16,893 nt of DNA from Acidithiobacillus sp. (GTDB lineage Bacteria > Pseudomonadota > Gammaproteobacteria > Acidithiobacillales > Acidithiobacillaceae), in NCBI GenBank assembly GCA_027445725.1, contig DAIAVG010000012.1:1-16893 (forward strand), given 5' to 3'. The notes below the pieces were generated by a model. It was not told where the DNA came from and searched no databases. It worked only from the letters and a program-made list of their open reading frames with translations. Positions 1 through 16,893 of this stretch are shown one piece after another. Positions within the stretch are counted from its first letter, which is position 1. Every line of letters starts with the position of its first letter. The position numbers were made by a program, and so were the translations under genes.

Positions 1-301
1 GCAAGGATCGGTTTTGCTCTATGGCCCCGGTCACCCTCCCGGTACCATTTCTCCAGAACAGCAGAGTGGGATAGCTCACCGCGAGCCACTCCGCAGGGCT
101 GATGCCATAGGGATACCCAGAATCAATAAATGAGAAGATGATCATCACCCCAACGACGAACATCGCCGGTTCTGCGATCATCCACAGCATGCCCAGCCCC
201 TCTCGTCCGAATCGCGTGACCGTCTCGCGTAAGGTGAGCGCCCAGATGATGCGCCCCTGTAGCCGTAATTGATCCCAGAAGGTTAGGTTGTCAGCGCGCA
301 T
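1..301 (-). CDS. kpsM: Capsular polysaccharide ABC transporter permease, KpsM-like (partial, runs off left edge)
   Basis: Inner-membrane subunit of the ABC-2 type transporter that moves a finished, lipid-linked capsule chain across the cytoplasmic membrane. Reading the minus strand from an ATG at 301 gives 100 residues with no stop. The start MRADNLTFWDQLRLQGRIIW leads into a cytoplasmic segment LRETVTRFGREGLGMLWMIAEP (residues about 23-44), which matches the conserved R-E-x-x-T-R-F-G...LG-x-x-W...EP pattern of KpsM/CtrC/BexB permeases. A first membrane helix follows at about 45-59 (MFVVGVMIIFSFI). The ATG overlaps the last 11 bp of the kpsE-like gene, so the two are probably translationally coupled. 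The ATPase partner (KpsT) should lie beyond the left edge. The family call is secure; only the N-terminal third is visible. Confidence 0.88.
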   Translation of the reverse strand, partial: MRADNLTFWDQLRLQGRIIWALTLRETVTRFGREGLGMLWMIAEPAMFVVGVMIIFSFIDSGYPYGISPAEWLAVSYPTLLFWRNGTGRVTGAIEQNRSL

Positions 302-2926: not shown

Positions 2927-2948
2927 CTTGCCTTTATAAGCAATTTCT

Positions 2949-2978
2949 ATGTTACACTGGCCCACGAAAGAAACACAA
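2949..2978 (-). promoter_or_regulatory. Possible sigma-70-like promoter for the manC-kpsE-kpsM operon
   Basis: On the minus strand TTGTGT (2978-2973) and TAACAT (2954-2949) are separated by 18 bp. They would start transcription near 2942, about 15 bases before the ATG at 2926. This lies in the only divergent intergenic space of the window (2927-3009). A promoter for the rightward operon must also lie here, and TATAAG at 2935-2940 is a possible -10 for it, but no convincing -35 is seen. The match is weak and is supported mainly by position. Confidence 0.3.
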
Positions 2979-3009: not shown

Positions 3010-4200
3010 TTGAACCACCTATGGAAATCTCGCATGCGCCGCTCTACCGTCCTGACGGCGCTTCTGCTGGGCATGACCCTGACCGGCTGCGCCTCGTACA
3101 TGCCCTACTCCGGGCCACGCGCCTCCAGCGTGAACGATGTAGCCCACAACAAGGTCATGGCTGGCATCCAGTTGGTGGATGTGAATTATGCGATCTCCCG
3201 CTACCTGAAAGATGAAATAGAGCGCCCAAAACTGGATTTACTCCAGGATTTCACCAACCTGCACCCCCTGATCTATACCGTCGGGGCTGGCGACACCTTG
3301 CAGGTGTATATCTGGGAAGCTCCCCCGGCCATGCTCTTTGCGCCCAGCACAGCATCCATGAGCACGCCCTCCGGTTCCATCATGACGACGATCCCCGACC
3401 AGATGGTGGGAAGTGACGGCGATATCATGATCCCCTTTGCAGGCAAAATCCCCTGTGCTGGTAAAACCCTGAATCAGATTGGTGCTGAAATCCGGGAGCG
3501 CCTCGCACGCATGGCCCACGACCCACAGGTGGTGGTCCGTCTGGTGAAGAATCATGCCCAGAGCGTTACGGTAGTCGGCAATGTAAAAAACAGTACCGAG
3601 ATCCCCATGATTCCGGGTGGCGTCAGCGTGCTGCAGGCCATCGCGGCAGCAGGAGGCGTGGTAAGACCGGTCAACAAGGTGACCATCCAGCTCTCCCGCG
3701 GTGGCAAGATACTGCAACTGCCTCTGGAGGAGGTCATTCGCAACCCGCGCGAGAATATTTCCTTGCGTGGCGGTGATGTGTTGACCGCACTCTATAAACC
3801 CTTACAGGTGACGGTCATGGGGGCGACCAAGGAGACCAAGGAAGTGGATTTTCAGGCTTCCGGAATCAACCTGGCCCAGGCGTTGGCGCAGGCGGGCGGG
3901 ATCAATGGCGATCAGGCGGATGCCAAGGCGGTTTTCGTGTTCCGCTTCGAAAAACCGACATTTCTCCCGCAATGGCCGAAACCCGTGCAACTCACGGCCA
4001 ATGGCGAGGTGCCTACGGTCTTCCGCTTCGATTTCTCTAATCCGGCCACCTTGTTCGCCGCGCAGACCTTCCCCATCCAGAATCATGATCTGATTTATGT
4101 GGCTTCGGCACCGATCACCGATCTGCAGAAGTTTCTGGGGCTGATCGTGCAGATCGTCTATCCGATTCAGGGACTGACGGCGGCAGGCGTGGTCCAGTAG
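3010..4200 (+). CDS. Outer-membrane polysaccharide export (OPX) lipoprotein, Wza/CtrA/BexD family
   Basis: Forms the outer-membrane channel through which the capsule chain leaves the cell. A lipoprotein signal is clear: basic MRRS, hydrophobic TVLTALLLGMTLTG and a lipobox Cys (residue 27 from TTG 3010, residue 19 from ATG 3034). The Poly_export domain covers about 85-180 (YTVGAGDTLQVYIWE, then GDIMIPFAGKI). A first SLBB domain follows (SVTVVGNVKNSTEIPM...AIAAAGGV, about 185-265) and a second (VTVMGATKETKEVDF...ALAQAGGI, about 270-355). The C-terminal hydrophobic segment KFLGLIVQIVYPI resembles the membrane-spanning helix of OPX proteins. At about 396 residues it is the CtrA/BexD/WcbC size. 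The TTG start at 3010 has GGAG five bases upstream; ATG at 3034 gives a more standard 18-residue signal peptide and is equally possible. First gene of the rightward operon. Confidence 0.92.
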   Translation: MNHLWKSRMRRSTVLTALLLGMTLTGCASYMPYSGPRASSVNDVAHNKVMAGIQLVDVNYAISRYLKDEIERPKLDLLQDFTNLHPLIYTVGAGDTLQVYIWEAPPAMLFAPSTASMSTPSGSIMTTIPDQMVGSDGDIMIPFAGKIPCAGKTLNQIGAEIRERLARMAHDPQVVVRLVKNHAQSVTVVGNVKNSTEIPMIPGGVSVLQAIAAAGGVVRPVNKVTIQLSRGGKILQLPLEEVIRNPRENISLRGGDVLTALYKPLQVTVMGATKETKEVDFQASGINLAQALAQAGGINGDQADAKAVFVFRFEKPTFLPQWPKPVQLTANGEVPTVFRFDFSNPATLFAAQTFPIQNHDLIYVASAPITDLQKFLGLIVQIVYPIQGLTAAGVVQ

Positions 4201-4208
4201 GATCGTCC

Positions 4209-5384
4209 ATGAGCGGGTTTGGCGACGCGCCGATTTTCCTGGATGTAACCCGCCTGCTGCACCGCCTGACGCGAGGACGGAGGCCGACCGGAGTGGATCG
4301 CGTGTGTCTCGCCTACGTGCGGCATTTCCACCATCGGGCGCAGGCCATGGTGATTTGGGGCGGCGTTGCGTTGGGCTTGTCCCCATCGGCTTCCGGGGCG
4401 ATTTTCGACTTGCTGGCGGGCTGGGAAGATGGTGAACGGACGATCAGTTTGGGGAGTACCCTGGGGGTCTTGCTCAAATGGCCGCTGCGCCCGGTACCTG
4501 CCGGGAGCTGGGTGCTCAATATGGGGCACAGCGGGCTGGACCAGAGGAGTTATCGTGGCTGGCTACGTCGGAAAAACATACGCTTGCTGGTGATGGTCCA
4601 TGACCTGATTCCTATTACCCATCCGCAGTTTTGTCAGGCGGGTGCGGCAAAACGTCATGCGCGACGAATGGGCTTGATTCTGGGGCAGGCCGAGGGGATC
4701 GTCAGTAATTCCCGGCATACGGCACAGATGCTCGATGACCATGCCCGACAGGCGGGGGCAGCGGTGCCGCCGGTAGCGGTGATTCCGCTGGGCGCCAAAA
4801 AATACCGGAACGCCTGTGCGGATGCACCTGGCGCGGCAGCGGGGCCTTATTTCGTGATGGTGGGGACACTCGAGCCCCGTAAAAACCATGCTTTCGTACT
4901 GCATCTCTGGCAGCGCATGCTGGACGAATGGAGCGCCGCGGATATCCCCCACCTGTTGGTCATCGGGCAAATCGGCTGGATGTGCGGTGGGGTGGTCCAC
5001 CAGTTGAGGACTGATGAGCGCCTGAAACAGGTCGTGCATCTGATAACGGATTGCGACGATGCCCGGCTCGGGCATTATGTGCGCCATGCCCAAGCCATGC
5101 TTTTTCCTTCGCATGCGGAGGGTTACGGATTACCTCTGCTGGAGGCGATGGATTTGGGAGTGCCGGTGCTGGCGAGCCCGTTGCCGGCGTTTCACGAGAT
5201 GGCGGGTATGGTGCCGGATTACCTTGACCTGGGCGACGAGGATGCGTGGTTGGAGGCGATTCTCGATTATGCGCAACCCGCGAGTGTCCGACGAGAGGCA
5301 CAATTGCGCCGCCTGCGCGGATTTTCTGCACCCAGATGGGCTGATCATTTTACAGAATTCGAAAACTTTGTGAGCCGCTTATGA
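4209..5384 (+). CDS. Glycosyltransferase, GT4 family (GT-B fold)
   Basis: Cytoplasmic sugar transferase, probably adding a residue to the capsule repeat or linker; donor and acceptor cannot be read from the sequence. The C-terminal half carries the GT4 pattern: the donor-domain entry strand FVMVGTLEPRKNH (about 216-228), then FPSHAEGYGLPLLEAMDLG (about 298-316), which has the E-x7-E nucleotide-sugar motif (EGYGLPLLE), and GVPVLASPLPAFHEMAG. The N-terminal half is less conserved, with LDVTRLLHRLTRGRRPTGVDR near the start, a pattern seen in bacterial GT4 enzymes that act on surface polysaccharides. It begins 8 bp after the OPX gene with AGGA placed six bases before ATG, and its TGA overlaps the next ATG (ATGA), which implies coupling to the PKS. 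391 residues is normal. Confidence 0.88.
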   Translation: MSGFGDAPIFLDVTRLLHRLTRGRRPTGVDRVCLAYVRHFHHRAQAMVIWGGVALGLSPSASGAIFDLLAGWEDGERTISLGSTLGVLLKWPLRPVPAGSWVLNMGHSGLDQRSYRGWLRRKNIRLLVMVHDLIPITHPQFCQAGAAKRHARRMGLILGQAEGIVSNSRHTAQMLDDHARQAGAAVPPVAVIPLGAKKYRNACADAPGAAAGPYFVMVGTLEPRKNHAFVLHLWQRMLDEWSAADIPHLLVIGQIGWMCGGVVHQLRTDERLKQVVHLITDCDDARLGHYVRHAQAMLFPSHAEGYGLPLLEAMDLGVPVLASPLPAFHEMAGMVPDYLDLGDEDAWLEAILDYAQPASVRREAQLRRLRGFSAPRWADHFTEFENFVSRL

Positions 5385-8300
5385 CAAATAAAAAAATCGC
5401 GATCATTGGCTATGCGTCGCGCTTACCGCAAACCTCGGATGCCACCTTCTGGGAGGACTTGCTAGCGGGCCGAAACCTGGTGACGCGGGTGGCGGGGGAC
5501 CGCTGGGCGCAGTACGGTTTCGAGCATCCGTCACGCGCCCATCCGGGCAGCTCGGTGACCTTTGCCGCAGGTTCACTAGGGGATGTAGCCGGTTTCGATG
5601 CCGGCTTTTTTCACATTTCTCCACGCGAGGCGGCGGCGATGGATCCGCAGCAGCGATTGCTTCTGGAGATGAGTTGGGAGGCCTTTGCCCATGCGGGGGT
5701 AGTGCCGAACCGTCTGCGCGGGAGTCGCTGCGGGGTATTTATTGGTCTGGCAAGCACCGATTATGGCTACCGCCTCGCCGATGACCTGGCCGCTATCGGA
5801 TCCAATACCGCCACCGGATGTACCGCGAGCATTGCGGCGAATCGCTTGTCCTATTTTTATGATCTGCGTGGTCCGAGTTTTGTGGTCGATTCCGCCTGCT
5901 CCTCAGCCCTCGTGGCCTTTCATCAGGCCTGCCAGGCCATTCTGCATGGCGAAAGCGATCTGGCCCTGACCGGTGCCATCAACCTGCATCTGCATCCTTT
6001 CGGGTTCATTATTTTTTCCAAGGCGTCCATGTTGTCGGCCGGGGGCCGTTGTCGGCCCTTTGATGCGGCCGCGGATGGGTATGCCCGCTCTGAGGGGGGC
6101 GGGCTGTTTGTGTTGAAGGACTATGATCGCGCCCGCCGGGACGGAGATCGCATTCTGGCGGTGGTGGCCCATACGGCGATCAATAGCGATGGCCACAAGA
6201 GCGGCCTGACCGTACCCAGCAGCCAGGCGCAGGAGAGATTGCTGGAGGAGGCCTACACGGCTGCCGGCATCGACCCCGAAACCATCGCGTATATCGAAGC
6301 CCACGGCACCGGTACGACGGTAGGTGATCCCATAGAAGTGGAGGCTATCGGTCGCGCCCTCGGCATGGCCCGCCAGCGGGGGAACCCGCTGCCCATCGGT
6401 TCCGTAAAAAGCAATCTGGGGCACCTGGAAACGGCTTCCGGAATTCCGGGATTGCTCAAAGCCATTCATTGTTTACGGGAGCGCACTGTACCGGCCACCA
6501 TCGGTATCCGCGCGTTGAATCCGCGTTTGCCACTGGCCGATTACGGCTTGGAGGTAGTGCAGGAAAACCGGCCCCTGAATCCCCATGGCGGTTTGGTTAT
6601 TGGCGTGAACTCTTTTGGCTTTGGCGGTGCCAATGCCCATGTGATCCTGGAAAGCGCGGAGCCGCGCAGGAAGCGACCAACACTCTGGCCGCGGCTGGGA
6701 CGCCACCAGCAGGAATTGCCCCTGATGTTGACCGCCGCTACCGCGACGGCCTTGCGCCAGGTGGCCGGCGATTTTGCGGACGCCCTGAGCGGTGAGGCCA
6801 GTGCCGACTACGCCCGCCTGTATCAGGCGAATTTCCGTCGCGGGCACTTGCGCGAACGGCTGCTACTGAAAGCCAGCAGCAGCAATGAACTGCAGGCCGC
6901 ACTCCGCGCATTTGCCGCCGGTTCGGAGCCAGCGGCGATACGGTTCGGATCGGCCATGGAATCTCCCCGTGGCCCGGTGTTTGTATACTCGGGCAATGGT
7001 TGTCAATGGGATGGCATGGGCCATGCCCTGCTCGAAGATCCCGTATTCGCGGCGACATTGGCCGAGGTGGATCGCTATTTCGCGCCGATGGCGGGCTATG
7101 CTTTGCGCGATGAATTGGCCGGCACATTGGGCAGCGGCCGCTATGCGCTGGCGGAACATACACAGCCCGCCCTCTTCGCCTTGCAGGTCGGTATCACGGC
7201 CATGCTGCGCGCAGAAGGGATCGAGCCGGTCGCAGTGACCGGCCACAGCGTCGGTGAAGTCGCCGCCGCCTGGGCCTGCGGCAGCCTGTCGCTGAGGGAT
7301 GCCGTACAGATCATATTTGAACGCAGTCGCCTGCAGGGGCAGTCCCGCGGTCAAGGATGCATGACCGCCGTCGCCAGTGATGGCGATACGGTTGGCGGCT
7401 GGCTGACAAGTTGGGGCCTGGCGGAGCAGATCAGCGTCGGCGCATGGAACAGTCCGCGCGGGGCCACCGTGGTCGGGCCGGAAGCGGCGGTGGACACGCT
7501 GGAACGGCAGCTGCGAGCCCAGGGTACCGGTTTTAAACGCCTGGAAATCGATTATCCTTTCCATAGCGCCCGCATGGATCCTTTGCGGGACGATTTGCTG
7601 CGTGTCTTGGCGGATATTCATCCGAGTCCTTCCCGTATCCCCTTTCTCTCTGCGGTGACTGGCAACGCAGTCGCTGGTGAGGACTTGGACGCCCATTACT
7701 GGTGGCGCAACATTCGCGAGCCAGTGCGTTTTCAACAGGCCGCCGCGGCCCTTTTGCCCGAATGGAATCTCTTTGTGGAACTGGGTGGGCACCCCATTCT
7801 CCGCAACTATCTGCAAGACACCCTGAATGCCGCGGGACACGAAGGCCAGGTCATCGAGACGCTACGGCGCAATGAAGACCAGCCACAGGCCATCTGGCAG
7901 ACAGCCTCAGCCATCTGGCTGGCGGGCATGGCACCTCAATGGCAAAACCATTATCCGCAGGCACCATCAGTAGCCGTCGACATCCCCCACTATCCATGGG
8001 AGCGGGAGCGTCACTGGCATGCGGTGACCTCCGAATCCGCGGGTACGCTGTACCGTTATCCCGTGCATCCTCTGCTGGGACATCCCGTACCGCAGCATCC
8101 GGGCGAATGGGAACAGATCATTGATATGCAACGCCTGCCCTTTCTGGCGGACCATAAGGTGGGTGATGGCATCGTCTTCGCCGGCGCGGCTTATGCGGAA
8201 ATGTTTCTGGCGGCAGCACGCGAGTGCGACCCGGATACAAAAGCCTGGATTGTGGAGGAGCTGGAAATCCAGGCGCCTTTGCTGTTGGAGGACGGGGTCA

Positions 8301-11300
8301 GCAAGGTCCTGCGCCTGAGTCTCGCGGACGATGGATGGGCAACCATCCAGGCGCGGACGCAGATGGAGGCGGACTGGACCCTCCACGCAAAGGCCCGGGT
8401 GCGCACGGGAAAACACCCGATGCGGGAACCGGCCATCGCAATGACCGGCATCGCGCAGGTGGCAGAGCAAGCACCCGATTTTACGGGTAGCGCGCATTAT
8501 GCCCTCACCCAGCATGTGGGCTTGCTTTATGGTCCGGCCTTTCAAACGGTGGAACAGGGTTGGTTAACGGCGGACGGTGTTGTGGCTCGGCTAACGCTGA
8601 CCCATACCGATGCGGAGGCGTTCCTGTTGCATCCCGCCTTGCTGGATGGCGCGCTGCAGTTGTTCGCCGACTGGCTGGCACAACGAGGGACGGGGGACAT
8701 CGGCTGGGGTTTTGTACCTGTACGCATGGAGCGCTTGACCATCTTGCGGGAGGCAGGCCGCGAACTTTGGGCGCAGATTCGGGTACGCCGTCAGTCGCCG
8801 CAATCCTTGCTCGCGGATGTGCTGCTCTTTGACCTGCAAGGGGCCTTGATAGCCCATGCGGAAGGGGTGCGGCTGCGCCGGGTACGTTTGCAGCATCACG
8901 AAACAGAACGTCTGCGCTTCCTGGACAGCGTGCTGGTGCCATGTCCTCAGGCGACCGACGCGATCTCCGCTTTGCCCGCGGACGAAATAACCAACCTATG
9001 GCGGGTAGCCTCAAGCGATACCCCTGCCGTCGACCGTTACGTCAACGAATACTCGCCTCTGCTGGAAGGCCTTCTGCACAGCTATGCCGAAGAACTGGCG
9101 GGTCAGAACGATGAAGAGGTTCAGGCGGCGGATATCTGGCACACCCTGCTACAGGATTACCCGGAGTTTTTTCCGATGACTCTGCAGGTGGGGCGGTGGG
9201 GACTGCACCAGGCGGGACGGGGCGAAGCATTCCACCCCATGGATTTCATCCCGGCAGCCCAAAAAGCCATTCTCCAGACCCTGACTCCAACGCTGATAGC
9301 GTTCCTGGGCGACGCAATCACGTTGATGCGCCGGCAATTGCCCTCTTCCCGACCCATCCGCGTGGCGGAAATCAGTGCGGCCGCCGCCGAGGCTCTTCCC
9401 GGGCTCAGCGCCGCATTGCAGGACGACCCCCGTTTCAGTTTTTTCCATCTCACATCGGTTACCGAAGATTCCGGCGAAGATAAGGGCTGGCTTACCCTGC
9501 CGCTGGATACTCCGGATCTTCCCCCCGTCGATCTGCTCTGGCTAAAGCTGGACCATCCGGAAGCGGAGCAGCAATGGCAGATGCTGAATGCCGCCCTGCA
9601 AACCCTCGCCGACGGCGGCTTGCTCATGCTCCAGGGGTCGCATCCGGAAAGCTGGTGGCAAACGCTCAGCCCCCAAACCGGGAGCTTGTTGACCCGCGCA
9701 ATCTGCCTCGAATGGTTGACGCAAAGAGGCCTCACCAACCGCACGCCGGTTAGCGCGGATGACTCACTCACCGGGCCCTATACGCTGTTACTGTCCAAAC
9801 CCGCACTGGTTCACCTTCCCTGCCTGGACGCTTCGGTCGGTAGCTGGCTGCTGGTGGCACCAACCCCGACGCCGGATCATCCCGATCTGGGCATATTGAT
9901 GGCGGCGCTGCAACAAGCCGGGCTGAACACCCGCTTCGCATATGGAGGGGCAGCGGATGGCATGGCCGACGATCTGTCAGCACAAGGACCACTATCCGGA
10001 ATTATTTACGTCGATCTGCCCGCAGATGAGCCCACGTTTCCTGTATCCGGCTTGACTCAGGCTTGCGATACACTGACCTTGATCGGCAAATGGGCAGTAC
10101 GCCGCACGCCGGTGGTGCCCGTGTATGTTCTGAGTGCAGGAGGCATACAGGCGACACATGCCGACGCCCATGGGAATGGCGCATCGGCAACTGCTCTGAA
10201 CGCGGCGGCGCTCTGCGGTTTTGCGCGCAGCCTGCAAAATGAATGGCCCGAGTTGTCGCTCAGGATCATTGACCGGGGGCTGCAGCCTCTCACCACCGCA
10301 CAGACGGACCATCTACTGCGCTTCTTACGGATGCCAGACACGGAAACGGAGATGGTCATTGATCCGGACGGAGCGCGCTTTGTACCCCGGGTGCGCGAAG
10401 TCGCTCTGCCCGTGAAAACGGCTGCCGGTAGGACAGCGCCATCAACCGGGACGGAAACGGCGCCATGCCGGCAATTGCGCTTTTCCATGCCCGGACAGCT
10501 GCGCAATCTGCAATGGATGACATGCCGTCTGCCTGCTCTGGCGGATCATGAAGTACGGGTGGCGGTCGCCTATACCGGACTCAACTTCCGCGATGTCATG
10601 TATGCCCTGGGCATGCTCTCGGATGAAGCCCTCGAAAGCGGATTCTCTGGTCCGGGTCTGGGTCTGGAATTTGCCGGACGGGTGCTTGAAGTCGGGCGAA
10701 AGGTCACGCGCTGGACACCCGGGGATGCCGTCATGGGTTTTGCACCGTCGAGCTTCTCTACGCAGGTATGCACCCTCGAAACCGCCATCACCGCTATCCC
10801 CGCGGCCATGGAGATGGCCTCTGCAGCGAGCATCCCCACGGTATTTTTTACGGCCTGGTATGCCTTGCAGGAAATGGCACGGCTGGAGACGGGCGAACGG
10901 GTACTGATTCATGGTGGTGCCGGAGGCGTGGGCATTGCGGCGATCCAGATCAGCCAAATGCTGGGCGCAGAGATTTACGCCACGGCCGGGTCGCCGGCAA
11001 AACGGGATTTTTTGCGTCTGCTCGGCGTGCCGCATGTTTATGATTCCCGGTCTCTGGATTTTGCAGACGCCATCTTGCAGGACACGGGCGGCGAAGGAGT
11101 CGATGTCGTACTGAACAGCCTATCCGGGGAAGCCATTCGGCGTAATCTACAGATATTGCGTCCCTTCGGGCGCTTTCTGGAGCTCGGCAAACGGGATTTT
11201 TACGAAAACACGCTTGTGGGGCTACGTCCCTTCCGGAACAATCTCAGCTATTTCGGCATCGACGCCGACCAGTTGCTGGCAGGGCGACCCGCCCTCACCC

Positions 11301-12706
11301 GCCGTCTTTTTGCTGCAATCATGGCACATTTCGCGCAGGGTGATTTTTTCGCTCTACCCGTCGCCCGCTTTCCGGCAGACCGGGTAGTGGAAGCATTTCG
11401 CCATATGCAGCAGGCGCGGCAAATCGGCAAGGTGGTCGTGGATCTGCAACCGCCCATGGCTGTTGCCCTTCATCCGGAGCATGCACCTTTGCCGCACATG
11501 GTGCTGGACGCTGACGGAACGTATCTGATTACCGGCGGTATTGGCGGCTTTGGTCTGGCCACAGCTCGCCGCCTGGCGGAGCGCGGCGCACGGCATCTGA
11601 TATTGGTCAGCCGCAGCGGAGCCCCGGACACCGCCGCGGCAGAAACCATAGAGGCGATGCAGGCGCAGGGCGCTGAGATCTGCTATCGAGCTTGTGACGT
11701 CAGTGATCACGGTCAGGTAGAGGCGCTGTTTGAAGCTATCCGTGAGCAACCGCGTCCTTTACGCGGTATCGTCCATGCGGCCGCAGTGATTGACGATGCC
11801 CTGGCGGAAAATCTGACGATGGAACACCTTCAACGCGTCCTGGCCCCCAAAGTCGCCGGAGCCTGGAACCTCCACCAACAAAGCCTCGGCATGCCCCTGG
11901 ACTTTTTTGTGCTGTACTCCTCCATCACCACCCTCCTCGGCAACCCAGGCCAGGCCCCTTATGTGGCCGCCAATACCTGGCTGGAGGGATTGGCCCGCTA
12001 CCGTCGCGCCCGGGGATTACCCGCTGTGGCGGTACGCTGGGGTGCTATCGGCGATGTCGGTTATCTCACACGCCACGAGAAAACCCGCGATCTCCTGCAG
12101 CAACGTTTGGGAGGTGCAGCGCTGAGCGCAGGCGGCGCCCTCGATACACTGGAAGCATTACTCGCCAGTGATCGTTCCGGTCTGGTGGTGGCGGATTTCG
12201 ACTGGCGGGCCGTGCGTCGTTTCCTGCCGAACGCCTCCGCGCCCCGCTTTGCCGCACTGAATGGCAGCATAGCGGATGATGGTCATGAAATGGATTTGGA
12301 TCTGCGCGCACACCCGTTGACCTTACCCGCAAATGCGGCGGAGACGTTCCTCAGCGATCTGGTGCGACGGGAAGTCGCGCAGATTTTGCGTCTGGCTCCT
12401 GAAAAGATCACCAATGACCAAAACCTGGCGCAATTGGGCCTGGACTCTCTGATGGGGGTGGAACTGGCTTTGGCCCTGGAGGAACGACTAGGTGTCAAAC
12501 TGCCGGCTTTTCTGCTGAGCGAAGGACCGACGTCGGCACGACTCGCCCAGCGTCTGGCGCATATGTTGCTGAAGGAGGCTGCTGACGAAGGCGATGCCCT
12601 CAGGCTGGATTTCGGAGCCCAGCAACTTCAGCATCTGGCCGATGCACACGGCGTAGTATCCGGTAGCGCCGATGCCGGCCGCCTCCTATCTGCAGGGAGC
12701 CATTGA
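5381..12706 (+). CDS. FAS-like highly reducing type I polyketide synthase (KS-AT-DH-psiMT-psiKR-ER-KR-ACP)
   Basis: A single 2441-residue megasynthase, probably iterative, that builds a reduced acyl chain from malonyl-CoA. Domains: ketosynthase about 4-430 (Cys173 in DSACSSAL, His308 in EAHGTGT, His348 in NLGHLE); acyltransferase about 530-845 (Ser623 in GHSVGE; YPFHS at 726-730, the FH type usual for malonyl); dehydratase about 890-1180 (His925 in LADHKVGDG, Asp1089 in HPALLDGALQ); methyltransferase-like region about 1200-1480 without a proper SAM motif; structural ketoreductase half about 1485-1670; enoylreductase about 1705-2025 (HGGAGGVG, about 1844-1851); ketoreductase about 2045-2260 (TGGIGGFG, Ser2181, Tyr2194; IDD motif suggesting B type); ACP about 2325-2400 (Ser2356 in LGLDSLMG). 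No thioesterase or reductase follows the ACP. The domain order is that of animal FAS and fungal reducing PKSs. From memory, WcbR of the Burkholderia pseudomallei capsule locus is a comparable protein. The start ATG overlaps the previous stop. Confidence 0.95.
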   Translation: MTNKKIAIIGYASRLPQTSDATFWEDLLAGRNLVTRVAGDRWAQYGFEHPSRAHPGSSVTFAAGSLGDVAGFDAGFFHISPREAAAMDPQQRLLLEMSWEAFAHAGVVPNRLRGSRCGVFIGLASTDYGYRLADDLAAIGSNTATGCTASIAANRLSYFYDLRGPSFVVDSACSSALVAFHQACQAILHGESDLALTGAINLHLHPFGFIIFSKASMLSAGGRCRPFDAAADGYARSEGGGLFVLKDYDRARRDGDRILAVVAHTAINSDGHKSGLTVPSSQAQERLLEEAYTAAGIDPETIAYIEAHGTGTTVGDPIEVEAIGRALGMARQRGNPLPIGSVKSNLGHLETASGIPGLLKAIHCLRERTVPATIGIRALNPRLPLADYGLEVVQENRPLNPHGGLVIGVNSFGFGGANAHVILESAEPRRKRPTLWPRLGRHQQELPLMLTAATATALRQVAGDFADALSGEASADYARLYQANFRRGHLRERLLLKASSSNELQAALRAFAAGSEPAAIRFGSAMESPRGPVFVYSGNGCQWDGMGHALLEDPVFAATLAEVDRYFAPMAGYALRDELAGTLGSGRYALAEHTQPALFALQVGITAMLRAEGIEPVAVTGHSVGEVAAAWACGSLSLRDAVQIIFERSRLQGQSRGQGCMTAVASDGDTVGGWLTSWGLAEQISVGAWNSPRGATVVGPEAAVDTLERQLRAQGTGFKRLEIDYPFHSARMDPLRDDLLRVLADIHPSPSRIPFLSAVTGNAVAGEDLDAHYWWRNIREPVRFQQAAAALLPEWNLFVELGGHPILRNYLQDTLNAAGHEGQVIETLRRNEDQPQAIWQTASAIWLAGMAPQWQNHYPQAPSVAVDIPHYPWERERHWHAVTSESAGTLYRYPVHPLLGHPVPQHPGEWEQIIDMQRLPFLADHKVGDGIVFAGAAYAEMFLAAARECDPDTKAWIVEELEIQAPLLLEDGVSKVLRLSLADDGWATIQARTQMEADWTLHAKARVRTGKHPMREPAIAMTGIAQVAEQAPDFTGSAHYALTQHVGLLYGPAFQTVEQGWLTADGVVARLTLTHTDAEAFLLHPALLDGALQLFADWLAQRGTGDIGWGFVPVRMERLTILREAGRELWAQIRVRRQSPQSLLADVLLFDLQGALIAHAEGVRLRRVRLQHHETERLRFLDSVLVPCPQATDAISALPADEITNLWRVASSDTPAVDRYVNEYSPLLEGLLHSYAEELAGQNDEEVQAADIWHTLLQDYPEFFPMTLQVGRWGLHQAGRGEAFHPMDFIPAAQKAILQTLTPTLIAFLGDAITLMRRQLPSSRPIRVAEISAAAAEALPGLSAALQDDPRFSFFHLTSVTEDSGEDKGWLTLPLDTPDLPPVDLLWLKLDHPEAEQQWQMLNAALQTLADGGLLMLQGSHPESWWQTLSPQTGSLLTRAICLEWLTQRGLTNRTPVSADDSLTGPYTLLLSKPALVHLPCLDASVGSWLLVAPTPTPDHPDLGILMAALQQAGLNTRFAYGGAADGMADDLSAQGPLSGIIYVDLPADEPTFPVSGLTQACDTLTLIGKWAVRRTPVVPVYVLSAGGIQATHADAHGNGASATALNAAALCGFARSLQNEWPELSLRIIDRGLQPLTTAQTDHLLRFLRMPDTETEMVIDPDGARFVPRVREVALPVKTAAGRTAPSTGTETAPCRQLRFSMPGQLRNLQWMTCRLPALADHEVRVAVAYTGLNFRDVMYALGMLSDEALESGFSGPGLGLEFAGRVLEVGRKVTRWTPGDAVMGFAPSSFSTQVCTLETAITAIPAAMEMASAASIPTVFFTAWYALQEMARLETGERVLIHGGAGGVGIAAIQISQMLGAEIYATAGSPAKRDFLRLLGVPHVYDSRSLDFADAILQDTGGEGVDVVLNSLSGEAIRRNLQILRPFGRFLELGKRDFYENTLVGLRPFRNNLSYFGIDADQLLAGRPALTRRLFAAIMAHFAQGDFFALPVARFPADRVVEAFRHMQQARQIGKVVVDLQPPMAVALHPEHAPLPHMVLDADGTYLITGGIGGFGLATARRLAERGARHLILVSRSGAPDTAAAETIEAMQAQGAEICYRACDVSDHGQVEALFEAIREQPRPLRGIVHAAAVIDDALAENLTMEHLQRVLAPKVAGAWNLHQQSLGMPLDFFVLYSSITTLLGNPGQAPYVAANTWLEGLARYRRARGLPAVAVRWGAIGDVGYLTRHEKTRDLLQQRLGGAALSAGGALDTLEALLASDRSGLVVADFDWRAVRRFLPNASAPRFAALNGSIADDGHEMDLDLRAHPLTLPANAAETFLSDLVRREVAQILRLAPEKITNDQNLAQLGLDSLMGVELALALEERLGVKLPAFLLSEGPTSARLAQRLAHMLLKEAADEGDALRLDFGAQQLQHLADAHGVVSGSADAGRLLSAGSH

Positions 12707-12707
12707 G

Positions 12708-14042
12708 ATGAGCCGGAACCCCCGCAGCCTTGCGGCCCAGGTAAAGGAGCGGCTGATCCAAAAAGGGCTCGAAAGGCGGATGGATCAATTGGCAAAAGGC
12801 CATACGACCCCCCTGTCCATTCATCATCACGCGACCCCCGAAAGCTTTACCCGTTTTGACCGGCAGCCGGGCTATCAGCAGGTTCGTCTGATGCAAGACG
12901 GTGCCCAGCGCCTGGGCGTAGAAAGCCCTTTTTTCCATGTGCATGAAGGGACCGCTTCTGCCCATAGTGCAATCGGCACCAAGCAGGTCATCAATTATGG
13001 CAGCTACAATTATCTGGGTCTGTCCGGGCATCCGGCGGTCAATGCGGCGGCCAAGGCGGCCATAGAACGTTATGGAACCTCCGTCTCGGCCAGCCGCATC
13101 GTGGCTGGCGAACGGCCTTTGCACCGTGAACTGGAAAACCTGATCGCTGCCACCTACGGAGTGGACGATGCCCTGGTGATGGTCAGCGGTCACGCCACCA
13201 ATGTCAGCGTGATCAGCCACTTGCTGGGGCCGAAAGACATGGTGCTGCATGACGAATATGCCCACAACAGCATTCTGATGGGCATTCAGCTCGCAGGCGC
13301 GCAACGGCTCAGCTTTCGCCATAATGATCTCGAATCTTTGGAACAACTGCTTGGACGCCACCGCCACCAGGTTGAGCGCTTGCTCATCGTGGTGGAGGGA
13401 CTGTATAGCATGGATGGTGATTTTCCCGACCTTCCCGAGCTGATTAAACTGAAAAAACAGTATGGTGCCTGGCTGATGGTGGATGAAGCCCACTCCTTCG
13501 GCGTACTCGGTATGCAAGGTCTCGGCATCCGTGAGCACTTCAGCGCAGATGCCCACGATGTGGACATCTGGATGGGTACTCTGAGCAAAACCCTTGCAGC
13601 CTGCGGTGGCTATGTGGCGGGTGAGCACGCCCTGATTGAGAACCTGCGCTATCTCGCACCGGGTTTTTTATACAGCGTAGGAATGTCACCACCGGTGGCC
13701 GCCGCTGCAACGGCAGCGCTCAAGATCCTGCGCGCCGAACCACAGCGGGTAGCAACCTTGCATGCCCGCAGCACTTATTTTCTGGAGCAGGCCCGGGCTC
13801 TGGATCTGAAGACCGGTTACAGCGCAGGACTTGCCATCACCCCCGTCATTCTCGGCAACTCGCTGGAGTCCGTGCGACTTGCTGCAGTTCTGCTGAAACA
13901 GGGGGTCCATGTGCAGCCGATCTTATATCCGGCAGTCCCCGAAAAGCAGGCGCGTCTGCGCTTTTTTCTCAGTTCTGCCCATAGCGTGGAAGACATCGAC
14001 AAGACGGTGATCGCGCTAAAAAAAGCCCTGTCTTCTACATAA
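12708..14042 (+). CDS. PLP-dependent alpha-oxoamine synthase (serine palmitoyltransferase / KAPA synthase family)
   Basis: Family members condense an acyl thioester with an amino acid (Ser, Ala or Gly) with loss of CO2, giving an alpha-amino ketone. Visible signatures: NYGSYNYLGLSGHP (substrate entry), GTSVSASRIVAGERPLH, HDEYAHNSI (the His that stacks on PLP), VVEGLYSMDGD, DEAHSFGVLG (the Asp that binds the PLP ring nitrogen), GTLSKTLAACGG (Lys forming the Schiff base) and FLYSVGMSPPVAAA. The start is ATG 12708, with AGGGAG eight bases upstream; an upstream in-frame ATG at 12672 lies inside the PKS. About 444 residues, longer than BioF because of an N-terminal extension of roughly 60-100 residues. 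It directly follows the thioesterase-less PKS, and no biotin genes are nearby, so release of the PKS chain is more likely than biotin synthesis. Serine versus another amino acid cannot be read from sequence. From memory, WcbT of B. pseudomallei belongs to the same family. Confidence 0.88.
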   Translation: MSRNPRSLAAQVKERLIQKGLERRMDQLAKGHTTPLSIHHHATPESFTRFDRQPGYQQVRLMQDGAQRLGVESPFFHVHEGTASAHSAIGTKQVINYGSYNYLGLSGHPAVNAAAKAAIERYGTSVSASRIVAGERPLHRELENLIAATYGVDDALVMVSGHATNVSVISHLLGPKDMVLHDEYAHNSILMGIQLAGAQRLSFRHNDLESLEQLLGRHRHQVERLLIVVEGLYSMDGDFPDLPELIKLKKQYGAWLMVDEAHSFGVLGMQGLGIREHFSADAHDVDIWMGTLSKTLAACGGYVAGEHALIENLRYLAPGFLYSVGMSPPVAAAATAALKILRAEPQRVATLHARSTYFLEQARALDLKTGYSAGLAITPVILGNSLESVRLAAVLLKQGVHVQPILYPAVPEKQARLRFFLSSAHSVEDIDKTVIALKKALSST

Positions 14043-14057
14043 ATGCTCGATATCATG

Positions 14058-14098
14058 TACGCTCTTTTGCATAGATGTTCTTCAGGAAGATGAGCGTA
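14058..14098. repeat. Short inverted repeat in the 118-bp gap between the oxoamine synthase and acyltransferase genes
   Basis: TACGCTC (14058-14064) and GAGCGTA (14092-14098) are exact inverted copies separated by 27 bp, extendable by two G-T wobble pairs. There is no T run after it, so it does not look like an intrinsic terminator. It may be a weak mRNA hairpin or chance. The gap (14043-14160) holds only tiny open frames (for example ATG 14043, 16 codons) and no convincing promoter. Confidence 0.25.
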
Positions 14099-14160
14099 TG
14101 CTGATCAATTACTGAAGCTTGTATCGCCGCAAAACAATAGTCGGCCATGAAGAGGACGCA

Positions 14161-15312
14161 TTGAAAAGCATCGTATTTACCCGCATAGGCGACGTTCCAG
14201 AAAAGGTTTGGGATGCCCTGAATGCTCAGGGCAGCGTAACGATGTCCCGGGCCTTCTGGTCTGTGGTGGAGCAATCAGATCTGAATGATTTTACCTATAG
14301 CCATGTACTTTTTCTGGAGGATGATGACACCCCGGCCGGGATCGTCAGCTTCTATTCCGTCACTACCGATATCGCCATTTTTGCACCAAGATCCGTCCGT
14401 TTCCTACTGAATATGGTCCGCAGCATCTGGCCCGGCTTCCTGAAATTGAAAATGCTGGAATGTGGCACCCCGGTCACCATTACCAGCCCGCCGTTCGTTT
14501 CGTCCACTTCGCGGGAACGTTTGCTGGAATCCATTATGGATATTTTGCAGCAAACAGCTCGCCGCGATGGTCATCTGCTGATTATTCTGCGAGATTTTGA
14601 ACCCAATGCACAGAAGTTCCGTGACCCACTCCAAAAACGGGGTTATCACTGGATAGAGAGCTTGCCCAATACCTACATGGATATCATCTGGGCTTCACCG
14701 GAGGCATATCGCCAGTCCATGCGGAGTTACTACCGTAGCAAACTGCAAAAACATCTGAAGCGCAATATAGAGGCGGGGGTACATCACGAGCTGGTGGATG
14801 ATTTTGCTGACATGGCCGATATCCTCTGTCGGCAATGGATGGTGGTCCATACGCACGCCAAGGAATTCCAACGTGAAGTGCTGACACCGGAGTTCTACCG
14901 GACCTTATCGCAGGAAATGGGCAGCGACTCCAAGGTACTGCTTTTTTACAAGGACGAGGAATTGGTCGGACACGCGCTCCTCCTGATGGATGGAGAAATG
15001 TTGCGCTGGCTGTATGTCGGGCGCGAGGTGGCAGCCAACGACAGTCTGTATATTTATATTGCCTACACCGTTGTCGAGTCGGCCATACTCCTGGGGGCCA
15101 AACAACTGGAGATGGGACTGACGACCTACGCCATCAAGCAGGATCTGGGCGCCGAAGTGGTGCCCATCCAGATGGCGCTGCGGGCCACATGGAGCTTTAT
15201 CAATCCTTTTGTGGGCCTGGGCTACCGCCTGTTAAATCATATCCCAGAAACCCACCCCCGCCCTGTTTTCAAGGCGGCAGCCATTAAGGAAACCCATCAT
15301 GACCGCAGATAA
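14161..15312 (+). CDS. GNAT-fold acyltransferase (FemAB/BioF2-like), candidate N-acyltransferase of a ceramide-like pathway
   Basis: About 383 residues with a two-part layout that suggests a GNAT/FemAB-like transferase: an N-terminal half of about 150 residues containing FWSVVEQSDLNDF and HVLFLEDDDTPAGIVSFYS, and a C-terminal half with SYYRSKLQKHLKRNIEAGV, then VLLFYKDEELVGHALLLMDG and LRWLYVGREVAANDSLYIYI, the strand-turn-strand core seen in GNAT proteins. GLTTYAIKQDLGAEVVP near the end resembles the closing part of Acetyltransf_6/DUF482-type proteins. No signal peptide. The chosen TTG at 14161 has AGAGGA four bases upstream; the longer TTG at 14119 has no good ribosome site. Its stop overlaps the following SDR by 14 bp. 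From memory, bacterial ceramide synthase (bCerS) of Caulobacter is a GNAT-type acyltransferase encoded with serine palmitoyltransferase and an SDR; the gene context matches. The fold call is fairly good, the function is inferred. Confidence 0.65.
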   Translation: MKSIVFTRIGDVPEKVWDALNAQGSVTMSRAFWSVVEQSDLNDFTYSHVLFLEDDDTPAGIVSFYSVTTDIAIFAPRSVRFLLNMVRSIWPGFLKLKMLECGTPVTITSPPFVSSTSRERLLESIMDILQQTARRDGHLLIILRDFEPNAQKFRDPLQKRGYHWIESLPNTYMDIIWASPEAYRQSMRSYYRSKLQKHLKRNIEAGVHHELVDDFADMADILCRQWMVVHTHAKEFQREVLTPEFYRTLSQEMGSDSKVLLFYKDEELVGHALLLMDGEMLRWLYVGREVAANDSLYIYIAYTVVESAILLGAKQLEMGLTTYAIKQDLGAEVVPIQMALRATWSFINPFVGLGYRLLNHIPETHPRPVFKAAAIKETHHDRR

Positions 15313-16300
15313 ACCGGTTCTGGTGACAGGTGCCACCGGATTTATTGGCAGTCATCTGGCCGAACGACTGATATCCCAGGGCAAAACGGTACGCTTACTG
15401 GTGCGCAATCCACTGCGCCTGAACATTCCGCTACGCCTGGCCACCCAAATCTGTGCGGGTGACCTGGAGAAAACCGAAACTTTGCATGCCGCCGTCAAAG
15501 GCGTCGACACCGTATTCCATTGTGCGGCCAATGTCAGCACCTGGGATCACCCAGAAAACTATGAAAAGACGAATGTAGAGGGACTGGGCCATCTGCTGGA
15601 TGCGATATCCGACTCCGGCACCCTGCCCCGCCGCTTTGTGCATCTATCAACCGTGGATGTTTATGGCTTTCCCGTGAATCCGTGTGACGAAAGCTGCCCG
15701 ACCCGTGCGCCAGGATTTGGTTATGGGGATAGCAAACTTCGCGGTGAAGCACTGCTTCGCGCTCGGGCGCAAGCCATGGCTTTGCCCTTTGTAATATTGC
15801 GTCCAACTAACGTCATGGGGCCACGTAGTCCATTTATAGAGCGAATCGGACATGAGTTGCGCTCAGGACTTATGCTTACCATTCATCGGGGGAAAGTGGA
15901 TGCCGGTTTTTTGTATGTCGGCAATCTGGTGGATACGATGCTTTGGGCCGCAGATGCGCATCAAGCCGCAGGTGAAACTTTTAACGTCAATGATCCTTCG
16001 CAAATCACCTGGCATCGCTTTTTGGAAGACTTTCGTAGCGGCATTCATGGTAAAGGATGGACCATCAATTTACCCTACGGCATAGCCAATGCTGCGGCAT
16101 CGGTCATTGAATCTCCTTATCGATGGCTCGGTTTGCGCCAGGAGCCACTGCTGCACCGTCTTCTGATACGCCTATTCGGACGCAGTTGCGGTCATTCTGC
16201 GGCAAAACTCGCTGCGGCCGGCGCACCGGTCGGCACAGTCGACTACGACCAGGCGATGGCCCAATCCATAAACTGGTACCTACGGACTTTTCGCCCGTGA
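15299..16300 (+). CDS. Extended SDR, NAD-dependent epimerase/dehydratase (3-beta-HSD-like); candidate keto-sphingoid/ceramide reductase
   Basis: Rossmann-fold oxidoreductase of 333 residues. Visible features: the N-terminal cofactor loop VTGATGFIGSHL (TGxxGxxG), FHCAANVSTWDHPENYEKTNVEG (about 79-101), VHLSTVDVYG with the catalytic Ser/Thr, and the catalytic pair YGDSK (YxxxK, about 142-146), then ILRPTNVMGP. The C-terminal third is typical of the 3-beta-hydroxysteroid dehydrogenase and dihydroflavonol reductase branch, which reduces ketones on lipid-like substrates, more than of nucleotide-sugar epimerases. Start ATG 15299 has AAGGAA upstream and overlaps the acyltransferase gene by 14 bp; its TGA overlaps the kpsS GTG. 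From memory, CerR of Caulobacter ceramide synthesis is an SDR annotated as an epimerase. Reduction of the beta-keto group made by the oxoamine synthase is the inferred role; a nucleotide-sugar activity for the capsule is the alternative. Confidence 0.82.
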   Translation: MTADKPVLVTGATGFIGSHLAERLISQGKTVRLLVRNPLRLNIPLRLATQICAGDLEKTETLHAAVKGVDTVFHCAANVSTWDHPENYEKTNVEGLGHLLDAISDSGTLPRRFVHLSTVDVYGFPVNPCDESCPTRAPGFGYGDSKLRGEALLRARAQAMALPFVILRPTNVMGPRSPFIERIGHELRSGLMLTIHRGKVDAGFLYVGNLVDTMLWAADAHQAAGETFNVNDPSQITWHRFLEDFRSGIHGKGWTINLPYGIANAAASVIESPYRWLGLRQEPLLHRLLIRLFGRSCGHSAAKLAAAGAPVGTVDYDQAMAQSINWYLRTFRP

Positions 16301-16893
16301 GTGCCCAAACCTGTAGGCATGTCCTTTTTCTTCAGGGGATGCCATCGCTTTTTTTTTATCGCATTGCACAAAAACTGGAAAATCACGGCTGCCGCGCAAC
16401 CCGTATCAACCTATGTGCCGGCGATCAACTGTTCTGGCCCGGAGAAAATGCATTGGATTACCGAGGCACGCTGGCAACCTGGCCCGACTTCGTCAGAACT
16501 TTCATGCGCACTCAGGGCGTTAGTGATCTCGTGCTGTTGGGTGAACACCGTCGGTATCACCGGGAGGCCGTCGATATTGCCTTGGAAATGGGGGTCAAGA
16601 TTACCGTCACCGATTTTGGTTATCTCCGGCCGGATTGGGTGACTTGGGAACGCAACGGCATGAGCGGCAGTTCACTGTTTCCCCGCGACCCGGCAGTCAT
16701 TCGCGCAATGGCTGCAGATGCGCCAGAAGTAGACTGGCAACCGTGCTTTTCTGATAATGCTCTGGCAATGGCAAGGGGTGATCTCTTACATAATTTTGCC
16801 AATTTTTTTGGGGTATTCCTGTACCCGCACTACCAGCGCAGCGATCGACGACCGGCTACCTTGCTTTATACAGGTGCGAGCGCTCTGCGCCTG
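16297..16893 (+). CDS. kpsS: Capsular polysaccharide export protein KpsS-like, beta-Kdo transferase (partial, runs off right edge)
   Basis: An open frame from GTG 16297 to the window end (199 codons, no stop). KpsS-type enzymes place the first beta-linked Kdo on the lipid acceptor of ABC-exported capsules; KpsC then extends it. The translation has the family's N-terminal pattern: VLFLQGMPSLFFYRIAQKL, RINLCAGDQLFWPGENALDY, RGTLATWPDFV, VLLGEHRRYHREAVDIA and FGYLRPDWVTWERNGM, with SSLFPRDP after it. The GTG overlaps the SDR stop as GTGA, so they are coupled. A run of nine T lies in codons 18-21. The frame starting at 16301 in another phase covers the same DNA but is not the real gene. The call is strong; only the N-terminal half is visible. 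Confidence 0.92.
   Translation, partial: MSAQTCRHVLFLQGMPSLFFYRIAQKLENHGCRATRINLCAGDQLFWPGENALDYRGTLATWPDFVRTFMRTQGVSDLVLLGEHRRYHREAVDIALEMGVKITVTDFGYLRPDWVTWERNGMSGSSLFPRDPAVIRAMAADAPEVDWQPCFSDNALAMARGDLLHNFANFFGVFLYPHYQRSDRRPATLLYTGASALRL
16349..16357 (+). repeat. T9 homopolymer near the 5' end of the kpsS-like gene
   Basis: Nine consecutive T bases encode part of LFFY at codons 18-21 of the kpsS-like frame. Slippage by one base would shift the frame early in the gene. Tracts of this kind switch capsule genes on and off in some pathogens, but nine T in one genome copy is only suggestive. Confidence 0.6.

What the first reader, a model, noticed from the sequence alone, without database searches (positions are those of the whole stretch)
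5381..16300. A PKS-fed ceramide-like lipid pathway embedded in a capsule locus
Seen: four consecutive genes encode a reducing PKS with no release domain, an alpha-oxoamine synthase, a GNAT-type acyltransferase and an extended SDR. Known: bacterial ceramide synthesis (Caulobacter, recalled from memory) uses serine palmitoyltransferase, bCerS (a GNAT acyltransferase) and CerR (an SDR). Inference: here the long-chain substrate comes from the PKS's own ACP and not from fatty acid synthesis; the oxoamine synthase joins it to an amino acid, the GNAT enzyme N-acylates it, and the SDR reduces the ketone. The product would be a ceramide or related sphingoid lipid of polyketide origin. A PKS plus oxoamine synthase pair in the B. 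pseudomallei capsule I locus (wcbR, wcbT) suggests the arrangement is wider than one species, with an unsettled role.
Basis: partly seen in the sequence, partly recalled or inferred. Interest (0 to 1): 0.85.

Follow-up and report, generated by a model that had tools for sequence, protein, structure and literature searches.

The report
Capsule locus with polyketide-made sphingolipid pathway
An acid-loving sulfur bacterium (Acidithiobacillus-like) carries, inside its capsule genes, a pathway that most likely builds a sphingolipid-type lipid from a polyketide chain, perhaps the lipid that holds the capsule to the cell, with two finishing enzymes that differ from the described versions.

Summary
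In detail: window 5381-16300 encodes a monomodular reducing PKS (KS-AT-DH-ER-KR-ACP, no TE), an alpha-oxoamine synthase (AOS), a GNAT-fold acyltransferase and an extended SDR, inside an ABC-transporter capsule locus. So PKS-fed sphingoid synthesis is not new. The bCerS/CerR half is not borne out by homology: the GNAT shows no detectable relation to bCerS and folds like FemX; the SDR shares only a superfamily with CerR. New here: two finishing modules on one PKS-AOS capsule core. Variant A (S. meliloti rkpAGHIJ, Pseudomonas, Burkholderiaceae) has a classical SDR plus an LTA-synthase-like protein (RkpI by position); variant B (this window and five genomes of a Methylococcaceae MAG's order) has the FemX-fold GNAT plus the extended SDR. 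In 16 AOS genomes LTA-like and GNAT never meet (7 and 5; 4 have neither). Best reading: a dedicated sphingoid capsule lipid, N-acylated in variant B. Function is inferred, not shown.

The parts
2..301 (-). KpsM-like ABC transporter permease, N-terminal 100 aa, cut by the window end
   Evidence: blastp 35% to L080 KpsM E 2e-20, 40% to L128 KpsM E 9e-20; no Pfam hit on the fragment
291..1409 (-). KpsE/CtrB/BexC-type capsule export inner-membrane protein
   Evidence: NCBIfam TIGR01010 313 bits, below its cut-off of 437.5
1424..2965 (-). ManC: mannose-1-P guanylyltransferase / mannose-6-P isomerase
   Evidence: TIGR01479 566 bits, above cut-off 373
3010..4200 (+). Wza/KpsD-type polysaccharide export lipoprotein
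   Evidence: PF02563, SLBB domains; start codon not settled
4209..5384 (+). GT4 glycosyltransferase
   Evidence: PF13692
5381..12706 (+). monomodular highly reducing type I PKS, KS-AT-DH-ER-KR-ACP, no release domain (RkpA/WcbR/SgaA-like)
   Evidence: Pfam domains, motifs
12672..14042 (+). PLP-dependent alpha-oxoamine synthase of the PKS-adjacent (RkpG-like) clade; a second possible start is 12708
   Evidence: PF00155; 52% to S. meliloti RkpG; trees
14161..15312 (+). tandem-GNAT, FemX-fold acyltransferase (PF13480/PF04339), TTG start; proposed N-acyltransferase
15299..16300 (+). extended SDR (GATGFIG and YGDSK motifs), proposed 3-ketosphinganine / 3-ketoceramide reductase
   Evidence: PF01370, PF01073; motifs; present with the GNAT in 5 of 5 genomes
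16297..16893 (+). KpsS-like capsule polysaccharide transferase, N-terminal 199 aa, cut by the window end; GTG start overlaps the SDR stop
   Evidence: PF05159 72 bits; NF050054 KpsS 86 bits, cut-off 600, on the fragment

Best explanation
The window is part of an ABC-transporter-dependent capsule locus that makes its own lipid. The PKS works iteratively and builds a long, fully or mostly reduced acyl chain on its ACP. The AOS takes the chain off the ACP by decarboxylative condensation with an amino acid, most likely serine, giving a 3-ketosphinganine (shown for SgaAB, inferred here). The extended SDR reduces the 3-keto group (inferred) and the FemX-fold GNAT acylates the 2-amino group (inferred), giving a ceramide-like lipid; the order of these two steps is open. 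KpsS (and KpsC, outside the window) then build the glycan linker on this lipid and KpsMTE/Wza export it (inferred from the gene set). It is variant B of a two-variant system; in variant A a classical SDR reduces the ketone and an LTA-synthase-like enzyme adds phosphoglycerol where variant B adds the N-acyl group.
For: PKS and AOS complete and coupled. Published SgaAB chemistry, PG-sphingolipids and a proposed SgaC reductase (PMC12134224 sections 7-9). PKS-AOS fusion in Planktothrix, KS-AT-DH-ER-KR-ACP-AOS. AOS clade apart from nine SPTs (SPT clade 100/99; AOS clade 100/98 and 97/99) and from BioF, KBL, ALAS. Capsule setting: capsule genes beside the AOS in L004-L008 and L128; at least 12 of the 16 best plasmid AOS rows have an LTA-like hit within 10 kb. 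Variant A: S. meliloti order PKS-AOS-SDR-RkpI(LTA-like)-RkpJ(KpsS-like); the LTA-like family matches solved LtaP, GacH and LtaS, with E221, T263, D445, H446 invariant in 11 of 11 rows. Variant B: AOS in 5 of 5 genomes with the GNAT, the seed genome included, and the SDR in the same 5, AOS being in 12 of 369 genomes of the class; 34 longest-contig lengths shared between the listed 120 GNAT and 120 SDR hits, control mean 0.72, maximum 6. Exclusivity: of 16 AOS genomes LTA-like in 7 (E 1e-20), GNAT in 5 (E 1e-20), SDR in the same 5 (E 1e-60), overlap of LTA and GNAT 0, neither in 4. rkp-1 makes a specific lipid carrier (PMC4881576); KpsS primes on (lyso-)PG in E. coli K5 (PMC7694667).
Against: No biochemistry for any protein here. 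GNAT has no bCerS homology and its fold neighbours include users of aminoacyl-tRNA, acyl-CoA and acetyl-CoA. LtaS-type catalytic domains face away from the cytoplasm in known members (recalled) while KpsS acts inside, so the order of steps in variant A is not clean. Variant B genomes are from one order, plus protein hits without context; the exclusion is p = 0.029 by counting and not corrected for kinship; 4 of 16 AOS genomes fit neither variant. The window AOS and the four other variant B AOSs in the tree are not one clade (the window pairs with a variant A row, 97/98), so the module or the AOS was exchanged. The window's DH lacks the motif Pro. SgaB itself was not compared (not held). Genes beyond the cut KpsS were not seen.
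Confidence: 0.5

Rival explanations
1. The PKS and AOS make a free sphingolipid (membrane lipid or metabolite, as described for P. fluorescens), and sitting among capsule genes is co-regulation, not an anchor role.
For: MYb115 sphinganines and PG-sphingolipids were found as extractable lipids and the paper does not mention capsule ('capsul' 0 occurrences). In L009 and L010 the AOS is not in an annotated capsule export locus.
Against: Capsule genes lie beside the AOS in L004-L008 and L128, beside the AOS or the GNAT in the 5 variant B genomes, and beside the AOS or the LTA-like gene in 6 of 7 variant A genomes (the exception G307 ends at its LTA-like gene). S. meliloti KPS genetics as reviewed (PMC4881576).
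Confidence: 0.2
2. The GNAT and the extended SDR act on a capsule sugar (N-acylated or keto/deoxy sugar) and not on the lipid; the lipid is plain sphinganine reduced by another enzyme.
For: Extended SDRs are common in sugar pathways; best NCBIfam match of the SDR is HpnA, hopanoid-associated sugar epimerase, 105 bits against a cut-off of 368; PDB matches include epimerases.
Against: Both genes go with the AOS in 5 of 5 GNAT genomes and are absent from the 11 other AOS genomes at the limits used. No classical KDSR-like or LTA-like gene was matched in the variant B stretches fetched; a classical SDR elsewhere in those genomes was not sought.
Confidence: 0.2
3. The GNAT is an aminoacyl-tRNA-dependent transferase (FemX/MprF-like) that puts an amino acid, not a fatty acid, on the long-chain base or on the glycan.
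Confidence: 0.15
4. The AOS uses glycine or alanine, or acts as a BioF-like enzyme, so the product is an aminoketone or deoxysphingoid, not a sphingoid base.
For: Highest NCBIfam score is BioF 352 bits; amino acid choice cannot be read from these data.
Against: The BioF cut-off of 426 is not reached; E. coli BioF stands on a very long branch outside the clade; no bio gene found in the window; SgaB has a nearly exclusive preference for serine over alanine and glycine (PMC12134224 section 8).
Confidence: 0.12

Closest known systems
SgaA/SgaB/SgaC of Pseudomonas fluorescens MYb115 (PMC12134224)
   Same: iterative monomodular PKS plus adjacent AOS; product class long-chain base
rkpA-rkpG-rkpH-rkpI-rkpJ (rkp-1) of Sinorhizobium meliloti; wcbR/wcbT of the Burkholderia capsule locus
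   Same: PKS, AOS (52% identity to RkpG) and KpsS-like gene in a capsule context
   Different: RkpH is a classical SDR and RkpI an LTA-synthase-like protein; the window has neither in its sequenced part. The wcb genes were not fetched; their labels come from PMC3908369 (wcbR) and recall (wcbT)
Caulobacter/E. coli BL21 ceramide pathway Spt-bCerS-CerR
   Same: logic: oxoamine synthase, GNAT-type N-acyltransferase, SDR
   Different: AOS outside the Spt clade; GNAT not homologous by profile comparison; no separate ACP or acyl-ACP synthetase in the window
Fungal fumonisin/sphingofungin PKS plus AOS (recalled; sphingofungin AOS also appears as 9pep)
   Same: AOS releases a PKS-bound chain
   Different: fungal, toxin products, no capsule
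FemX/MprF/N-myristoyltransferase tandem GNAT fold
   Same: fold of the GNAT protein
   Different: 7-13% identity in the rows shown; donor unknown

Membership tests
SgaAB-type PKS-derived sphingolipid pathway | monomodular reducing PKS without release domain next to an AOS | tested here: met
SgaAB-type PKS-derived sphingolipid pathway | AOS orthologous to SgaB | tested here: inconclusive
   in a clade of PKS- or capsule-linked AOSs, 47-60% to the 19 variant A and B rows, but SgaB itself is not held
SgaAB-type PKS-derived sphingolipid pathway | KDSR-like classical SDR | tested here: not met
   the window SDR is an extended SDR, PF01370/PF01073; the cut window may hide another gene
SgaAB-type PKS-derived sphingolipid pathway | serine palmitoyltransferase activity | not testable with these tools
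   needs an enzyme assay
Bacterial ceramide pathway (Spt, bCerS, CerR) | AOS in the Spt clade | tested here: not met
   Spt clade 100/99 without it; its own clade 100/98 and 97/99; the three SPT models give 312, 291 and 228 bits against cut-offs 640, 500 and 670
Bacterial ceramide pathway (Spt, bCerS, CerR) | GNAT homologous to bCerS (YghO/CC_1154 family) | tested here: not met
   hhalign probability 0.3%, E 0.19 over 28 columns; blastp best E 5.5
Bacterial ceramide pathway (Spt, bCerS, CerR) | NDUFA9-type CerR | tested here: inconclusive
   27% over 292 aa, E 5e-20 to E. coli CerR; NDUFA9 chains among CerR's best PDB hits but not in the 60 of 120 shown for the window SDR
Bacterial ceramide pathway (Spt, bCerS, CerR) | dedicated ACP and acyl-ACP synthetase beside spt | tested here: not met
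   no such gene among the main genes of the window; the only ACP domain found is the PKS's own
rkp-1/wcb capsule lipid module | PKS + AOS + KpsS-like gene in an ABC-export capsule locus | tested here: met
rkp-1/wcb capsule lipid module | classical SDR (RkpH) and LTA-synthase-like RkpI | tested here: not met
   not among the genes of the window, which is cut; LTA-like absent at E 1e-20 from 5 of 5 variant B genomes
BioF (8-amino-7-oxononanoate synthase) | score above the TIGR00858 cut-off; bio genes nearby | tested here: not met
   352 against 426 bits; no bio gene among the window's genes

The most novel reading that the evidence does not exclude
A whole class of bacterial capsules is anchored on a purpose-made sphingolipid: the PKS-AOS core supplies the long-chain base, and two unrelated finishing modules complete it, phosphoglyceryl-sphinganine (a look-alike of lyso-PG, the known KpsS acceptor) in rkp/sga-type loci and an N-acylated, ceramide-like base in this window's type, made by a FemX-fold acyltransferase, a ceramide synthase type separate from both the eukaryotic and the bCerS families.
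Probability: 0.33. Interest if true: 0.85.

Novelty: new variant of a known kind. Interest (0 to 1): 0.6.

Why it matters
The 'specific lipid carrier' of rhizobial capsule is named but not given a structure in the passages seen here, and the 2025 PKS-sphingolipid paper does not mention capsule. Putting the two together gives a direct test: look for a sphingoid at the reducing end of these capsules. If right, it could explain why PKS-AOS pairs (6,101 reported in PMC12134224, mostly Burkholderia) so often sit with capsule genes, as in the loci seen here; it would widen the set of sphingolipid makers to acidophilic sulfur oxidisers and methanotroph relatives, and add a third, unrelated candidate for N-acylating long-chain bases.

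Tried and rejected
Considered and rejected: (1) GNAT as a bCerS homologue: blastp, hhalign of a 31-row against a 6-row alignment, Pfam, and a search of 5 variant B genomes with YghO (the last has no positive control in those genomes). (2) The strong PF04339 protein near some sphingomonad-like spt genes (L056 and kin) as bCerS: YghO has no Pfam match, so I took that protein for another family; the window GNAT is its distant relative (hhalign 96.7%). (3) AOS as BioF. (4) The short GNATs near the AOS in L004 and L005 (200 and 227 aa) as the same gene: no phmmer hit and blastp E 0.8 or worse against the window GNAT.

Led nowhere: the genome-contig scan with the GNAT gave one locus; a phylum-wide draw of 398 genomes gave no GNAT genome besides the centre; the window's own genome is not held; Kiss 1997 is not held. 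PDB sequence searches with the GNAT and bCerS profiles found nothing up to E 0.1. Paper searches listed no paper that I could see tying PKS-AOS sphingolipids to capsule anchoring; they cover only the open-licence PMC library, in ranked lists of 3 to 25 papers, most of which I did not open.

Tree caveats: the first tree (37 rows) flagged long branches; the second dropped 7 rows (ALAS, KBL, Acidisoma and four unassigned AOSs) and gave the same separation. The AOS of G093 (L048, part of a longer protein) was in neither tree. NDUFA9 or OleD chains may lie among the 60 PDB rows not shown.
Full report
Source. The window is close to Acidithiobacillus: the GNAT is 96% identical to a protein named Acidithiobacillus thiooxidans and the SDR 95%. 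No genome is held for it.

Observation. ORFs, Pfam and NCBIfam confirm the four genes and a capsule setting on both sides. KpsM, KpsE and ManC run on the minus strand, Wza-GT4-PKS-AOS-GNAT-SDR-KpsS on the plus strand, with overlapping or near-touching ends except for a 118-nt gap before the GNAT. Terminator-like stems lie in the AOS 3' end; whether they matter is unknown. The PKS has all reducing domains and one ACP, and no release domain was found. The AT motif YPFHS fits malonyl-CoA use (rule recalled). In the DH motif the window has Ala where 6 of 9 relatives have Pro; the other 3 did not match my pattern.

PKS and AOS. The literature already holds this chemistry. PMC12134224 (abstract, sections 7, 8, 9, 15 and passages read) shows PKS SgaA and AOS SgaB making C24-C28 sphinganines in P. 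fluorescens, serine use by purified SgaB, likely phosphoglycerol sphingolipids, a proposed KDSR-like SgaC, and 6,101 homologous pairs, mostly Burkholderia. It does not mention capsule. PMC3908369 (passages) describes wcbR/rkpA PKSs as part of capsule clusters. In a tree of 37 rows the window AOS sits in a clade of PKS- or capsule-linked AOSs (support 100/98), apart from nine SPTs (100/99) and from E. coli BioF, KBL and an ALAS; a second tree of 30 rows agrees. Identity is 47-60% to the 19 variant A and B rows, 43-57% to five other AOS rows, and 32-37% to SPT, KBL, BioF and ALAS. A Planktothrix protein is a KS-AT-DH-ER-KR-ACP-AOS fusion, which supports direct take-off from the ACP.

Variant A. 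Around the AOS in named plasmid records and in fetched genomes a set recurs: PKS, AOS, classical SDR, LTA-synthase-like protein, KpsS- and KpsC-like proteins; not every stretch shows every member, and L128 has no PKS beside the AOS. In S. meliloti pSymB the gene between RkpH and RkpJ, absent from the PLSDB gene table, is such an LTA-like protein, so by position it is RkpI (the names are assigned from the order given in PMC7902896 and from recall). The family, queried with the L004 member, matches solved LtaP, GacH and LtaS and keeps Glu, Thr, Asp and His that fit the LtaS metal and nucleophile residues (recalled, 11 of 11 rows). Of the 16 best plasmid AOS rows, at least 12 have an LTA-like hit within 10 kb; none was listed for Planktothrix, two Streptomyces and Nocardia (40 of 42 LTA rows listed). 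This fits the phosphoglycerol sphingolipids of MYb115: that the LTA-like enzyme makes them is my inference. It would give sphinganine-1-phosphoglycerol, a look-alike of lyso-PG, on which KpsS starts in E. coli K5 (PMC7694667, passages). Against this: known LtaS-type domains face outwards (recalled), KpsS works inside.

Variant B. A search of 251 genomes of the order of G001 gave 5 with the GNAT at E 1e-60, G001 included (its contig, from a MAG named Methylococcaceae, is the locus that led there). All 5 have the AOS, the extended SDR and a KpsS-like gene. G811 holds PKS, AOS, KpsS, SDR, GNAT, KpsC, GT4 and Wza on one contig; G766 holds a cut AOS, KpsS, SDR and GNAT; G001 holds PKS end, AOS, KpsS, SDR and the start of a GNAT on one contig and GNAT, KpsC, GT4, Wza on another; G744 and G678 have PKS-AOS and the GNAT-SDR-KpsS group on different contigs. 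In the class, 12 of 369 genomes have the AOS at E 1e-100. Of the 16 AOS genomes in hand (12 of the class plus 4 more of the order), LTA-like proteins are in 7, the GNAT in 5, the SDR in the same 5, none has both LTA-like and GNAT, and 4 have neither (limits E 1e-20, 1e-20, 1e-60). Counting gives p 0.029 for the exclusion and 0.0002 for GNAT and SDR falling in the same 5, not corrected for kinship; the 5 are from one order. In variant A, LTA-like and AOS lie in one fetched stretch in 4 of 7 genomes (G080, G307, G075, G366); in G364 they are near the two ends of one contig, in G159 and G333 on different contigs. Capsule genes were matched beside the AOS or the LTA-like gene in 6 of 7 (not G307). 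Wider support for the GNAT-SDR pair: 34 longest-contig lengths are shared between the listed 120 GNAT and 120 SDR hits, control mean 0.72, maximum 6 over 200 offsets, and Acidihalobacter aeolianus gives BJI67_10620 (GNAT) and BJI67_10615 (SDR); Thiomonas proteins are in both lists. The GNAT is rare: no further genome in a phylum draw of 398.

SDR. It has GATGFIG and YGDSK, is 27% identical to E. coli CerR, and its best PDB matches are 3beta-HSD-like and epimerase-like enzymes, while CerR's include NDUFA9. A ketone reductase of a lipid is plausible; OleD, a 2-alkyl-3-oxoalkanoate reductase model, gives 97 bits against a cut-off of 580, and HpnA, a sugar epimerase model, 105 against 368, so neither settles it.

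Role. [quoted passage not shown] PMC5539429 (passage) says that KPS is attached to a lipid anchor. In B. pseudomallei, deletion of the stretch wcbR to wcbA removes capsule I (PMC5507470, PMC8650638, passages); this removes several genes, so it does not test the PKS alone. The capsule review PMC12220298 has no occurrence of 'sphingo', 'polyketide', 'ceramide' or 'rkp'. The ten paper searches listed no paper whose title or abstract start names a sphingoid as capsule anchor.

Verdict. The PKS-fed long-chain base is likely and has a published precedent. The bCerS identity is not borne out for the GNAT, and the CerR identity is open for the SDR. The new point is the pair of finishing modules on one capsule-lipid core, with a concrete product proposal for each.

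Noticed in passing
L009 1617-9215 (Planktothrix agardhii plasmid p3): PKS with the AOS fused to its C-terminus after the ACP, near glycosyltransferase genes; no capsule export gene is annotated in the 17-kb stretch.
   Followed up: partly
L128 11025-23917 (Acidisoma sp. plasmid): Capsule locus with AOS, classical SDR, a fatty-acid-hydroxylase-family protein, KpsC/KpsS-like and LTA-like genes but no PKS beside them: possibly the same lipid fed by ordinary fatty acids.
   Followed up: partly
L007 14259-15797 (S. meliloti pSymB): RkpI by position is an LTA-synthase/GacH-like protein (PF00884); the gene is missing from the PLSDB gene table.
   Followed up: yes
window 8150-8191 (PKS residues 924-937): DH motif reads DHKVGDGIVFAGAA where 6 of 9 relatives read FPG: the motif proline is replaced; DH activity may differ.
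   Followed up: no
L005 13094-14008, L006 13030-13956, L041 15182-16087: LpxC-like deacetylase gene near the PKS-AOS pair in three variant A loci; possible further step on the lipid.
   Followed up: no
L010 4311-9134 (Streptomyces anthocyanicus plasmid), L048 6476-9820: Larger proteins with the AOS as one part; no capsule gene annotated (L010) or matched (L048) nearby.
   Followed up: no
L103 14283-19886 (E. coli BL21(DE3)): Complete Spt-ACP-CerR-ligase-YghO set beside genes annotated lptF/lptG in a common laboratory strain.
   Followed up: no
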